Shown: positions 7,961 to 10,749 of the stretch, in pieces
Numbering within the stretch: position 1 is the stretch's first letter
How the letters are laid out: each line of letters opens with the position of its first letter
NCBI GenBank assembly: GCA_023488405.1
Contig: JAMDDW010000021.1
Span: forward strand, 1 to 14,169
Direction: 5' to 3'
DNA from: Candidatus Parvarchaeota archaeon
GTDB lineage: Archaea; Nanobdellota; Nanobdellia; Parvarchaeales; Parvarchaeaceae
DNA: 14,169 nt
Notes under the pieces: generated by a model
The model's input: only the letters and a program-made list of their open reading frames with translations
Told to the model about the DNA's origin: nothing
Database searches by the model: none
Made by a program: the position numbers and the translations under genes

Positions 7961-7997
7961 ATATGAAAAGATTTATATATGATAAAAATTTCATATA
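7961..7997 (+). promoter_or_regulatory. Candidate operator of the mer operon (inverted repeats around TATA)
   Basis: TATATGA (7976-7982) and TCATATA (7991-7997) form a perfect 7-bp inverted repeat with an 8-bp spacer, over the predicted transcription start. A third half-site, ATATGAAA (7961-7968), is the exact complement of TTTCATAT (7989-7996) and lies upstream of the TATA element. TGA-spacer-TCA repeats in AT-rich DNA are typical sites for ArsR/SmtB repressors, and such a repressor is encoded in this operon. Binding here would block promoter access until metal releases it. AT-rich promoter DNA gives chance repeats, so this remains a candidate. Confidence 0.45.
7971..7980 (+). promoter_or_regulatory. 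TATA element of the mer operon
   Basis: ATTTATATAT is centred 26-27 nt upstream of the ATG at 8002, the same spacing as for the other leaderless genes. It partly overlaps the inverted repeat described for 7961-7997. Confidence 0.55.
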
Positions 7998-8001
7998 ACG
8001 A

Positions 8002-8523
8002 ATGATGCAGGACATAAGAAAAGTCATAACTAAGAGAATGTATGCATTGATGTTTTTCATTATGTTTGCTGCCGTATTTATTCTCTATTTCTATCTCTTG
8101 GAAAGCTCTGCAACGGGGATAATTGACTTTGGATCCTACTACATCTACTTTGATTTGCTTTCATCGTTTGTAATATCATTTTTGATAAGCTTAGTTATAA
8201 CAATGAACGTTTATTCTTACAAATTAAAGGCAAAAACAAGCAAAAAGCTGACATTAAGCTCAATAGTGGGAGCAATACTTCCGAGCAGCTTGTGTTGCAC
8301 CAGCGTCATACCTTCACTGCTTGCCGTGCTTGGTTTTTCAACGTCATTTATAGTGGGAAACACCGGAAAGATACAGTCCATATTTTCCGTTTATGGACCC
8401 TTATTTATTGCAGCAGGAGCCGCAATAGCATATTTTGGCCTTATACAAATAACTAAAAACATAAACGCAAGCTGTAAAATAAATGTTGCCGAAAAAGAGG
8501 ACTGCTGCGAGGTCAAGGAATGA
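8002..8523 (+). CDS. MerT-like mercuric ion transport membrane protein
   Basis: This 173-residue protein has four likely membrane spans (about 14-33, 50-71, 86-117 and 129-150). The third span begins with a vicinal cysteine pair, Cys98-Cys99, in LPSSLCCTSVIPSLLAVLGF. Bacterial MerT has the same arrangement: a Cys-Cys pair in a span followed by a small-residue LGFS-type segment. A second pair, Cys168-Cys169, with Cys158 nearby, sits in the charged C-terminal tail and probably faces the cytoplasm, where MerT also has a second pair for hand-off to MerA. By analogy it would bring Hg(II) into the cell. It heads an operon with a thioredoxin-like protein, an ArsR regulator and MerA, and its stop overlaps the next start by 4 bases (ATGA). 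The fold match is by pattern, so another thiophilic metal remains possible. Confidence 0.68.
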   Translation: MMQDIRKVITKRMYALMFFIMFAAVFILYFYLLESSATGIIDFGSYYIYFDLLSSFVISFLISLVITMNVYSYKLKAKTSKKLTLSSIVGAILPSSLCCTSVIPSLLAVLGFSTSFIVGNTGKIQSIFSVYGPLFIAAGAAIAYFGLIQITKNINASCKINVAEKEDCCEVKE

Positions 8524-9074
8524 AAATAAAGATAAAATATATCTTGTATGCTGTTGTTGTGGTGATAGCCTTAGCTCTAATATTGAATTTCTTTATTTTA
8601 AACCATGCAAAGCAGAGCAAGTACCTTTCAATTGGTGAAACTGCCCCTAATTACACATTTCAGCTTGCAAACGGAAGCACAAAAAGCTTAAACAGCTATC
8701 AAGGAAAACCCTTAATTCTTTGGTTCGTAGCGACATGGTGCAGCAGCTGTGCACAAGGAAACGCAGCAGTGGCAGACAACCTCGCATTTTTCAAGGAGCA
8801 TAACGTGAAGATATTAGAATTAGAGCAGTATGATGACCTTGGAACCACTGGCATGCCCATCTCACAGTTCATTTCTGAATACGGAAACAACAACACTTAT
8901 GTAACTGGAGGAATTGCAAGCTACAATATGACATTGGCTTACAACACTCCGCCGGAATTACAGCTTGACATTTATTATCTGATAAGCCCAAACGGAAAGA
9001 TATTATATGTAGGAGAGGGAATTGCAAACGGGATGGGCAGCCTTGAAAATATAATATCAAAAGATGATTTATGA
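8520..9074 (+). CDS. Membrane-anchored thioredoxin-like (TlpA/ResA type) protein in the mer operon
   Basis: The 184-residue protein begins with a short basic end and a membrane anchor (about residues 7-28), followed by an extracytoplasmic thioredoxin fold. The active site is Trp73-Cys74-Ser-Ser-Cys77 in FVATWCSSCAQGN. Preceding it is the TlpA-type GETAPNYTFQLANGSTKSLNSY segment, here noted only by its start at about residue 39 and end at 60. A TPPELQ segment holds the likely cis-proline, then YYLISPNGKILYVGEG forms the last strands. Normal members reduce disulfides outside the cell. In this operon it overlaps the MerT-like gene and the regulator gene by 4 bases each, so it is tied to mercury handling. 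It may bind or deliver Hg(II) in place of MerP, which is missing, or keep transporter thiols reduced. The fold is well supported; the mercury role is inference. Confidence 0.8.
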   Translation: MKIKIKYILYAVVVVIALALILNFFILNHAKQSKYLSIGETAPNYTFQLANGSTKSLNSYQGKPLILWFVATWCSSCAQGNAAVADNLAFFKEHNVKILELEQYDDLGTTGMPISQFISEYGNNNTYVTGGIASYNMTLAYNTPPELQLDIYYLISPNGKILYVGEGIANGMGSLENIISKDDL

Positions 9075-9394
9075 AAAACGCAACTGACCTTTTTTTTGAT
9101 GCATTCGCAAACAAAAACAGGTTCAATATACTTATGCAGCTGAGAAACAAAGAAATGTGTGCAGGAGACCTTCAAAAAACTCTGGGTGTGGAGCAGACTA
9201 ACTTATCGCATGATCTAAAATGTCTACTTAACTGTAAGTTCATAAGCGTAAGAAAGGAGGGAAGAAAAAGAGTTTACAAAATAAACAATGAAACCAATGA
9301 ACTAGTTGACGAAGTAGCGAAGCATGTTAAAAACTATGAAACTTACTTGAAGAAATGCGGTATACTGAAGGAGGAAAAAAATGGAAGAATATGA
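9071..9394 (+). CDS. ArsR-family metal-sensing repressor (MerR-analogue of the mer operon)
   Basis: This 107-residue winged-helix regulator of the ArsR/SmtB family probably represses its own operon and is released by Hg(II). The fold is shown by ANKNRFNILMQL (helix 1-2), the recognition region LGVEQTNLSHDLKCLL and the wing VRKEGRKRVYKI. The metal-sensing helix of ArsR, ELCVCDL, appears here as EMCAGDL, so only Cys30 of the usual pair remains. Cys51 and Cys55 in the recognition helix (LKCLLNC) and Cys96 near the C-terminus could complete a site. The start overlaps the preceding stop (ATGA) and the end overlaps merA by 14 bases. A regulator as the third gene of the cluster differs from most bacterial mer operons, where merR is divergent. 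Archaeal mer loci are known to use ArsR-type regulators. The inverted repeat at 7976-7997 is its likely site. Confidence 0.85.
   Translation: MKNATDLFFDAFANKNRFNILMQLRNKEMCAGDLQKTLGVEQTNLSHDLKCLLNCKFISVRKEGRKRVYKINNETNELVDEVAKHVKNYETYLKKCGILKEEKNGRI
9368..9374 (+). promoter_or_regulatory. Shine-Dalgarno of merA
   Basis: AAGGAGG ends six bases before the merA ATG at 9381, inside the end of the regulator gene. It confirms the merA start and shows that internal operon genes use leadered initiation. Confidence 0.75.
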
Positions 9395-10340
9395 GTATGC
9401 AATAATAGGGCAAGGGGCTGCTGCATTCGCTGCAGCGTTGAAGGCAGATGAAGCAGGAATAAAGACGGTAATGATAGGAAAGAATGAAACTAAGGGAACA
9501 TTACTGGGTGGAACTTGTGTAAATGTAGGATGCGTTCCCAGTAAACGACTGATAACAGTAGGAAATTTGCTAGATAATATGAATAAAAAGAGATTTGATG
9601 GTTTATATTATTCCACAAAGGTAGAAAACTTCAATAAGATAATGCAGGATAAGGAATTTCTTGTTGGAAGCATGCGCTTTTCAAAATACCAAAAAGTCCT
9701 CGGCAAACTTAAAAACGTAAAATACATCAATGGCTTTGCAAGCTTAAAGGATAAGAACACCGTGATTGTCAATGGTCAGGAGATAAAGGCAAAGAAGATA
9801 CTTATAGCAACGGGCGCAAGGGCCAAGGTACCTGAAATAGACGGAATAGAAAAAGTAAAGTACCTAACAAATGAAGAGGCTCTTTCAATAAAAAAGCTGC
9901 CAAAATCTATAATCGTTGTAGGGGGGAGAGCTCTCGGCCTTGAATTTGCAGAGATGTTTGCACATTTTGGTGTAAAGGTAACTCTGCTGCAGAGAAGCGA
10001 AAGAATACTGCCAAACTGGGAGCCTCAAGTGAGCTACTACCTTGAGCAGTACCTGAAAGAAGAAGGCGTAAACATAATAACAAACGCAAAAATAGACAAA
10101 GTTTCAAAATCTCAAGAAGCCGTAAAAGTTTACTTTTCAGTAAAGGGAAAAGAACAGGAAGTTAAAGCAGATGAAATATTACTGGCTACAGGAAGAACAC
10201 CAAACATAGAAAAATTAAATTTAAATAAGGTGGGAATAAAATTAAACGAAAATAGCTTCATAAAAATAGACAAGTACATGGAAACCTCTGTCAAGGGAAT
10301 ATATGCTGCAGGTGATGTAACCGGATGTGAATGCATTTAG
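9381..10340 (+). CDS. merA: Mercuric reductase MerA, N-terminal two-thirds (broken gene)
   Basis: MerA reduces Hg(II) to volatile Hg(0) with NADPH through FAD and paired thiols. This 319-residue part has the FAD-binding start (YAIIGQGAAAFAA), the redox disulfide Cys46/Cys51 in GGTCVNVGCVPSK, the ATGARAKVP turn (about 144-151), the NADPH-binding VVGGRALGLEFAE (179-191), the second ATGRTPN motif and the second FAD motif YAAGDVTG. It lacks the N-terminal HMA (NmerA) domain present in many bacterial forms. Right after GDVTG the frame reads CECI and stops at 10338-10340. The family continues there with about 17 residues and then ENA, and the latter reappears in another frame, so about 47-50 bases have been lost and the frame shifted. 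The dimer interface and C-terminal cysteine pair are cut off, so the product alone should be inactive. Confidence 0.88.
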   Translation: MEEYEYAIIGQGAAAFAAALKADEAGIKTVMIGKNETKGTLLGGTCVNVGCVPSKRLITVGNLLDNMNKKRFDGLYYSTKVENFNKIMQDKEFLVGSMRFSKYQKVLGKLKNVKYINGFASLKDKNTVIVNGQEIKAKKILIATGARAKVPEIDGIEKVKYLTNEEALSIKKLPKSIIVVGGRALGLEFAEMFAHFGVKVTLLQRSERILPNWEPQVSYYLEQYLKEEGVNIITNAKIDKVSKSQEAVKVYFSVKGKEQEVKADEILLATGRTPNIEKLNLNKVGIKLNENSFIKIDKYMETSVKGIYAAGDVTGCECI

Positions 10341-10749
10341 CGATAAAAAATTAGCAATAGACCTAAATTCTGTACCTTCTGCCGTTTTTACATTTCCAGA
10401 AGCGGCAAGAGTAGGCTTAACGGATGAGGAAGCAAATGGCAAAGGCATAAGATGTGCTTGCAGGCCGGTATTGTTCAAGGATTTGGCAAAGGCAGGCATA
10501 ATAAAGGACACTAGAGGATTGATAAAAATGGTAATAAATGCCAAGACAAAACGCATATTGGGTGTAGAGATAGTAGGGGAAAATGCTGCAGATTTAATAC
10601 ATGAAGCAGTATTGGCGGTAAAATTCAAGCTTACAATAGATGATATAATCGACACTGTGCACATGTTCCCGACACTAAGCGAGATAATGAAGCTAGGGGC
10701 TTTGTCATTTTATCACAATGTAGAGGATTTAAGCTGCTGTAGTGAATAG
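10327..10749 (+). pseudogene. merA: Mercuric reductase MerA, C-terminal third (out of frame with the N-terminal part)
   Basis: This 140-residue segment matches the MerA dimerisation domain: FTFPEAARVGLTDEEA, then GLIKMVINAKTKRILGVEIVG, HEAVLAVKFKLTIDDI and HMFPTLSEIMKL. It ends in LSCCSE with the vicinal pair Cys137-Cys138 that passes Hg(II) to the active site of the other subunit. HMFPT rather than the HxHPT of lipoamide dehydrogenase, plus the terminal CysCys, identify mercuric reductase rather than a generic flavin disulfide reductase. The first codon open in this frame after the break is GTG at 10327, with no Shine-Dalgarno close by, so separate translation is unlikely. The rest of the frame is intact to the stop, with no further damage, which argues for a recent deletion or an assembly error. 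Confidence 0.85.

What the first reader, a model, noticed from the sequence alone, without database searches (positions are those of the whole stretch)
7961..10749. Compact archaeal mercury-resistance operon with an unusual gene set
Seen: a membrane protein with Cys-Cys pairs (98-99, 168-169), a membrane-anchored WCSSC thioredoxin-like protein, an ArsR-family regulator and a MerA with both the CVNVGC disulfide and the terminal SCC pair, all overlapping by 4-14 bases behind one promoter. Known: bacterial mer operons use MerT plus periplasmic MerP and a divergent MerR-family regulator; the Sulfolobus locus uses an ArsR-type regulator with MerH and MerI. The order merT-like, thioredoxin-like, arsR, merA matches neither. 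Inference: this is a separate archaeal solution, possibly acquired by transfer.
Basis: partly seen in the sequence, partly recalled or inferred. Interest (0 to 1): 0.7.

Follow-up and report, generated by a model that had tools for sequence, protein, structure and literature searches.

The report
Archaeal mercury operon with thioredoxin-like partner
Tiny acid-loving archaea carry a mercury-detoxifying gene set in which a membrane-anchored thioredoxin-like protein stands where bacteria have their usual mercury-binding protein; in this particular genome the mercury-reducing enzyme gene itself is broken.

Summary
The four genes at 8002-10749 are real, but merA here is two frames (9381-10340, 10327-10749), 47 nt shorter at the junction than intact relatives. 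The rest is intact, with low dN/dS. The set recurs: full order in 12 of 28 genus genomes plus one of another genus. In a second phylum (Micrarchaeota), a TlpA-like gene lies near merA in 37 of 37 loci read and the membrane gene in 36, 21 in the window's order; 0 of 8 distant-reductase loci have either. ArsR proteins of these cassettes share three cysteines at CmtR spacing. A palindrome, ATATGA-N8-TCATAT, stands at the first gene in 13 of 13 genus genomes with the membrane gene and occurs in 23 of 37 Micrarchaeota loci, backwards control 0. MerP-type HMA domains: 0 of 28 genus genomes. Best reading: an ArsR-repressed archaeal mer operon in which a MerT-related four-segment protein and a TlpA-like protein do the uptake, without MerP. 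Against a fixed rule: three family genomes have merA without the pair beside it. Recent transfer into this lineage is not supported: the locus is syntenic in close relatives.

The parts
7972..7979 (+). TATA-box-like element TTTATATA, about 26 nt before the first start codon
   Evidence: read from sequence; TTTATATA directly before the palindrome in most of the aligned genus cassettes, not in G006 and G003; promoter function inferred
7977..7996 (+). putative ArsR operator, palindrome ATATGA-N8-TCATAT overlapping the TATA-like element
   Evidence: only match in the window's genome; at the cassette in 13 of 13 genus genomes with the membrane gene, and at unrelated places in 2 of 15 others; in 23 of 37 Micrarchaeota loci. 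ArsR binding is inferred
8002..8523 (+). MerT-related membrane protein, 173 aa, four predicted membrane segments, CC98-99 in the third, C158 and CC168-169 in the C-terminal tail
   Evidence: (PF02411, 22.3 bits, below cut-off)
8520..9074 (+). membrane-anchored ResA/TlpA-like thioredoxin-fold protein, 184 aa, WCSSC
   Evidence: closest solved structures by profile are ResA
9071..9394 (+). ArsR/SmtB-family metalloregulator, 107 aa, C51-x3-C55 and C96 at CmtR spacing, plus C30
9381..10340 (+). MerA N-terminal part (319 aa, last 4 residues unlike relatives), CVNVGC; broken
10327..10749 (+). MerA C-terminal part in another frame, dimerisation domain and terminal CC; cut off from the upstream part
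10325..10326 (+). deletion junction: 47 nt fewer than intact relatives; no repeat at the ends seen by eye

Best explanation
This is the Parvarchaeal form of an archaeal mer operon. Inferred mechanism: the outward-facing TlpA-like protein captures Hg(II) with its WCxxC pair, in place of MerP. It hands the metal to the vicinal cysteines in the third membrane segment of the MerT-related protein, which passes it to its cytoplasmic tail cysteines (C158, C168-C169). These load MerA, which reduces Hg(II) to volatile Hg(0). The ArsR protein sits on the palindrome over the TATA element and keeps the operon off until Hg(II) binds its three-cysteine site. Shown by computation: gene identities, association, conserved cysteines, conserved palindrome, no HMA domain found in the genus. 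Inferred: metal specificity, direction of transfer, topology, repression. In this assembly merA is broken, so this copy as assembled should not detoxify.
For: MerA match to TIGR02053 in both halves; the five best solved relatives of the N-terminal part are mercuric reductases. Four-gene order in 12 of 28 genus genomes and in G029. In Micrarchaeota, the membrane gene is in 37 of 38 genomes with a MerA of 47% identity or more and in 3 of the other 158 (Fisher p 3e-35). Trx within the stretch read around merA in 37 of 37, 0 of 8 for distant reductases. C51/C55/C96 in 20 of 20 rows of alignment A3 and in 31 of 31 Micrarchaeota ArsR matched at 1e-15. Palindrome in 13 of 13 genus genomes with the membrane gene, 2 of 15 others, and before a relocated merA in G030. 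No HMA domain in 28 of 28 genus genomes while 13 of 14 control genomes ring. dN/dS 0.04-0.12 for all parts against two relatives.
Against: The membrane protein is below the curated MerT cut-off, has four segments rather than three, and matches two bacterial MerT alone at only 11.5%. The pair and merA can part: membrane plus trx without merA in G028 and, at the syntenic locus with merA deleted, in G013; the membrane gene in 3 Micrarchaeota genomes without such a MerA; merA without the pair beside it in G030 and G021, and a 49%-identical merA with only an arsR in G015 of the same genus. Palindrome: no 6-base-arm match in 14 of 37 Micrarchaeota loci, one mismatch at the G030 trio, none at G028; the motif was found by looking at the window and relatives first, so the counts are not blind. 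Genomes are incomplete. No direct evidence of mercury binding by any part. merA is broken in this window.
Confidence: 0.65

Rival explanations
1. The membrane and TlpA-like proteins are a thiol-redox pair: the membrane protein carries electrons to the TlpA-like protein, which repairs exported thiols oxidised or blocked by Hg(II), rather than importing the metal.
For: The trx is ResA/TlpA-like, a family of thiol reductants. None of 28 genus genomes shows a DsbD/CcdA transmembrane domain, so some other reductant would be needed. The pair occurs without merA in G028 and G013.
Against: The vicinal CC in a membrane segment and the following P..L..G pattern resemble MerT. In Micrarchaeota the membrane gene tracks merA closely.
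Confidence: 0.2
2. A general soft-metal or thiol-stress operon (Cd, Pb, Au, Hg), with MerA as one output; the CmtR-like sensor answers several metals.
For: ArsR cysteines match the spacing of CmtR, a Cd/Pb sensor (family named; offset +6 to chain 2jsc; CmtR residue numbers recalled, a paper search for them found nothing relevant). arsR occurs without an adjacent merA in G030, G013 and one G021 contig.
Against: MerA is the usual partner, and the palindrome has one site per cassette genome in the genus, so no wider regulon of that exact motif is seen.
Confidence: 0.12
3. In this genome the cassette is a decaying operon: merA was lost first and the rest is following, as at the same locus in G013. 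This can hold together with the best explanation for the intact relatives.
For: 47-nt frame-changing gap here; G013 keeps only about 8 codons of merA at the syntenic place.
Against: Other three genes intact with low dN/dS; an intact near-identical MerA exists; the gap may be an assembly error.
Confidence: 0.3

Closest known systems
Bacterial mer operon (merR, merT, merP, merF, merA), e.g. Paracoccus albus plasmid p2 (L090)
   Same: MerA; CC-containing membrane protein of the MerT type; close-packed genes
   Different: MerR-type regulator replaced by ArsR inside the unit; no HMA protein MerP; four membrane segments instead of three; a TlpA-like protein present
Sulfolobus mer locus with ArsR-type regulator and TRASH-domain protein
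   Same: archaeal MerA with an ArsR regulator
   Different: membrane and TlpA-like proteins here; no TRASH domain among the Pfam matches of the cassette proteins
MerT-bearing loci in other Nanoarchaeota families found here (L037, L039, L040, L048, L050)
   Same: ArsR with the same three cysteines in L037, L040 and L050 but not L038; MerA in L039 and L048
   Different: MerT-sized proteins and, by eye, HMA MerP-like (L037, L048) or fused MerTP (L050) proteins; no match to this trx by tblastn
CmtR/SmtB metalloregulators
   Same: fold and cysteine spacing
   Different: coded inside a mer operon; metal preference untested

Membership tests
MerA (mercuric reductase) | match to TIGR02053 over the curated cut-off (454 bits) in one protein | tested here: not met
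   halves score 347.8 and 168.8 bits separately because of the frame break
MerA (mercuric reductase) | redox pair CVNVGC and C-terminal vicinal cysteines | tested here: met
   both in the DNA, in two frames here; in one chain in P0105, P0106 and P0109
MerT | Pfam PF02411 over its cut-off | tested here: not met
   22.3 bits against 32.9; 9 of 30 family members match at E up to 1
MerT | vicinal Cys pair in a membrane segment followed by the P..L..G core | tested here: met
   L97-C98-C99-T-S invariant in 30 of 30 aligned, of 46 found; profile-profile 90.8%, E 1.2e-6 to 17 archaeal plus 2 bacterial MerT that I had picked by a CC..P pattern, and 11.5% to the two bacterial alone
MerT | three transmembrane helices | tested here: not met
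   four hydrophobic segments; model of mean pLDDT 68.6 agrees with four
MerP | HMA domain (PF00403) | tested here: not met
   none in the cassette proteins; 0 of 28 genus genomes; 2 of 38 merA-bearing against 55 of 158 other Micrarchaeota genomes
ArsR/SmtB regulator | match to ArsR-family models over cut-off | tested here: met
   PF01022 39.6 bits (cut-off 22), NF033788 80.6 bits (cut-off 55)
CmtR | three Cys at positions 57, 61, 102 (recalled numbering) | tested here: inconclusive
   C51 and C55 map by a +6 offset to 2jsc (alignment letters not printed); C96 fits the same spacing but lies outside the aligned stretch
CmtR | NF047906 over its cut-off (150 bits) | tested here: not met
   43.6 bits
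TlpA/ResA thiol-disulfide oxidoreductase | membrane-anchored AhpC-TSA/Redoxin domain with WCxxC | tested here: met
   PF00578 44.1 bits over 26; W73-C74 and C77 invariant in 26 of 26 aligned, 25 of them from 58 found; ResA best PDB match; the named models ResA, TlpA and DsbE are not reached at their cut-offs

The most novel reading that the evidence does not exclude
A TlpA-like thioredoxin-fold protein has replaced MerP as the outside Hg(II) carrier across a clade of DPANN archaea that have lost or never had MerP-type HMA proteins, working with a four-segment MerT relative under a three-cysteine ArsR repressor: a third, lineage-wide way of building a mer operon.
Probability: 0.45. Interest if true: 0.68.

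Novelty: new variant of a known kind. Interest (0 to 1): 0.58.

Why it matters
The 2012 survey states that mer transporters are absent from all archaeal taxa but one merP in Ferroplasma (PMC3466566, passages seen); a 2013 paper notes merP with merA in several Thermoplasmatales (PMC3750248, passages seen). The 2021 survey counts MerA in Parvarchaeota (10) and Micrarchaeota (22) genomes; the passages I saw say nothing of what stands beside it (PMC8261052). Here a recurring pair of partner genes and a shared palindrome are found in two phyla, which makes it directly testable how these cells handle mercury without MerP. It would also give a small, autoregulated archaeal mercury switch.

Tried and rejected
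Viral contigs: 37 pattern matches, no relative of the membrane family confirmed. Recent transfer as the origin in this genus: rejected on synteny. A wider ArsR regulon by this exact motif: not seen in the genus. Microhomology at the merA gap: none seen by eye. Bacterial MerT alone as profile partner: 11.5%, so the MerT link rests on archaeal MerT-like proteins. The structure model was of moderate confidence and was used only for the segment count.
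Full report
WHAT IS THERE. The window lies in a 419,610-base, 49-contig genome, 71% complete. Relatives' records are titled Candidatus Parvarchaeota or Nanoarchaeota archaeon; the name Parvarchaeal for the group is mine. Three intact genes, 8002-8523, 8520-9074 and 9071-9394, are followed by merA, which is split: 9381-10340 and 10327-10749 in different frames. The parts match TIGR02053 at 1-309 and 327-464; 47 nt are missing beside intact relatives, with no repeat at the ends by eye. 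In one search, 15 of the 28 genus genomes (own included) have a match over 45% identity and over 200 residues; in 13 of the 15 the open frame is 475 codons or more, the exceptions being the window (323) and G002 (cut by a contig end, with a second partial match on another contig). P0105, intact at 471 aa, differs from the window's in-frame residues at one place.

EACH PART. The membrane protein scores 22.3 bits to Pfam MerT, under the 32.9 cut-off. In 30 of the 46 homologues found (short fragments and some close copies left out) L-C98-C99-T-S is invariant. For a profile comparison I took 17 archaeal proteins from the 22 loci of the Pfam MerT search (where only 2 of 237 genomes pass the curated cut-off) and 2 bacterial ones, picked by a CC..P pattern, which favours the shared motif. 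hhalign gave 90.8%, score 47.5; the ten highest of 60 column shuffles scored 13.8-23.0 (0-0.7%), the reversed set 20.4 (1.6%), the two bacterial alone 25.9 (11.5%). Hydropathy gives four segments, in line with a model of moderate confidence; charge distribution suggests both ends inside (inference). The thioredoxin-like protein is ResA/TlpA-like with one hydrophobic N-terminal segment. The ArsR protein passes its family cut-offs.

RECURRENCE, OWN FAMILY. Membrane gene with E below 1e-78: 13 of 28 genus genomes. Complete order membrane-trx-arsR-merA: 12 of 28 (own with broken merA, and G002 with merA cut by the contig end, included) plus G029 in another genus. Departures: G013 has the three first genes at the same place but about 8 codons of merA; G030 has the trio on one contig and merA on another; G028 has membrane and trx genes only; G021 has merA with an arsR remnant and trio pieces elsewhere; G015 has a 49%-identical merA with a 28%-identical arsR and neither partner in the 7.8 kb read; G026 is cut by a contig end.

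RECURRENCE, SECOND PHYLUM. In the phylum of L034 (a record titled Candidatus Micrarchaeota), 196 genomes were searched; 59 matched MerA at 1e-60 or better, 38 of them at 47% identity or more, the other 21 at 36% or less. I read the surroundings of 37 of the 38 (30, 7; G267 is cut by a contig end) and of 8 of the 21. Trx within the stretch: 37 of 37; membrane gene: 36 of 37, the miss (L172) ending at a contig end; same order as the window: 21 of 37; the rest rearranged, some divergent, some without arsR. The 8 distant ones: 0 with either. By genome, the membrane gene is in 37 of 38 and in 3 of 158 others.

REGULATION. The palindrome was noticed in the window and first relatives (wider arms, 17 of 36 loci) and then counted, so the counts are not blind. 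ATATGA-N8-TCATAT occurs once in each of the 13 genus genomes with the membrane gene, at that gene, and in 2 of the 15 others at unrelated places; the pattern read backwards gave 4 matches in 3 of 28 genomes. About 0.12 matches per 420 kb are expected from base composition. It ends 4-7 nt before the start codon in 11 genus genomes and G029; in G006 and G003 the frame opens inside it (my reading; three starts typed there were a few bases off). In G030 it ends 6 nt before an ATG of the relocated merA, while the G030 trio has a one-mismatch form and G028 none. In the 37 Micrarchaeota loci it occurs 24 times in 23 loci, backwards 0; with 5-base arms 27 times in 24 loci, backwards 0. With 5-base arms it stands before the first gene in 23 loci, most often 4 nt before the start codon (L161, where it lies elsewhere, not counted). 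ArsR cysteines C51, C55 and C96: 20 of 20 rows of A3 (15 own-family cassettes, the G015 copy, L033, L034, and L037 and L050 from MerT-type loci) and 31 of 31 Micrarchaeota ArsR at 1e-15. Of the four ArsR near MerT-type genes, L037, L040 and L050 keep all three and L038 does not. Repression is inferred.

NO MerP FOUND. HMA domains: 0 of 28 genus genomes, control 13 of 14; the genomes of L033 and L034, none; Micrarchaeota, 2 of 38 merA genomes (G316 under the curated cut-off, G439 in an 817-codon frame) against 55 of 158 others. DsbD/CcdA: 0 of 28 genus genomes. Many genomes are incomplete (59-100% in the genus).

DESCENT. Flanks (DnaG and a DUF gene on the left, an LD-carboxypeptidase-like and a nucleotidyltransferase gene on the right; names by recall, not scanned) are shared on both sides with G025, G001, G009 and G013, and with G018 (DUF gene and right side), on one side with G002 and G026 because contigs end. 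Six others (G014, G019, G020, G003, G005, G029) show none of these flanks in the 9-15 kb read; G006 has too short a contig. The MerA tree (54 rows, chosen from those in hand) has a 20-row clade (100/99) whose named members are all Parvarchaeal, near Micrarchaeota and MAGs labelled Marsarchaeota; the G015 copy falls outside on a long branch that the program flags. dN/dS of the window against G025 and G009: 0.04-0.12 for all parts.

LITERATURE. Searches: merA+archaea+ArsR+TlpA, 0 papers; Parvarchaeum+mercur, 3; mer operon+ArsR+merT+thioredoxin+Archaea, 9; merA+thermophilic archaea+mercuric reductase+operon+ArsR, 4; Micrarchaeota+mercuric reductase, 4; CmtR+ArsR+mercury+mer operon, 2; mer operon+TlpA, 2; merT+archaea+merA+Nanoarchaeota, 2; Sulfolobus+merH+merI+merR+ArsR, three of five terms, 228 with 10 listed. 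I saw passages (and for PMC8261052 and PMC3466566 the abstracts), not whole texts, of PMC8261052, PMC3466566, PMC3750248, PMC6350386, PMC5864196 (no mercury terms), PMC7779479 (merA in 1 MAG of its Parvarchaeota family and in the inferred ancestor), PMC10378326 and PMC6445937; the other hits only as listings. None of the passages describes this gene set. PMC6445937 reports a TlpA transcript induced by Hg(II) in Thermus, whose mer operon it gives as merA, merR and oah2. The library is open-access only, so absence from print is not proven.

Confidence of the best explanation went from 0.66 to 0.65 because the G015 exception and the CC-selected MerT set had been left out; CmtR spacing is now marked inconclusive.

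Noticed in passing
L080 4262-4660 (G013): At the syntenic locus merA is gone but for about 8 codons, while the three upstream genes and the palindrome remain.
   Followed up: partly
L037, L039, L040, L048, L050: Other Nanoarchaeota families carry loci with MerT-sized proteins, some with HMA MerP-like proteins (by eye), MerA or ArsR, against the older view that archaea lack them.
   Followed up: partly
L082 2626-3150; L083 2814-3332; L086 2701-3219: A distant paralogue of the membrane protein with a P-F-C-C motif beside what look by eye like ribosomal-protein genes, in the own genome and relatives; role unknown.
   Followed up: no
L088 4001-5400 (Thermococcus peptonophilus plasmid): The best plasmid merA match is annotated as two overlapping FAD-oxidoreductase frames, with HMA and YHS domain genes upstream.
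   Followed up: no
G006:C52:1736-2425: The trx gene of G006 gives two overlapping profile matches in a 232-codon frame, as if part of it were duplicated in tandem.
   Followed up: no
L171, L173, L175: In more divergent Micrarchaeota loci the membrane/trx pair stands divergent from merA, without the palindrome.
   Followed up: no
L085 3784; L094 and L097 first gene: In G030 merA and in the G003 and G006 membrane genes a reading frame opens inside the palindrome itself.
   Followed up: no
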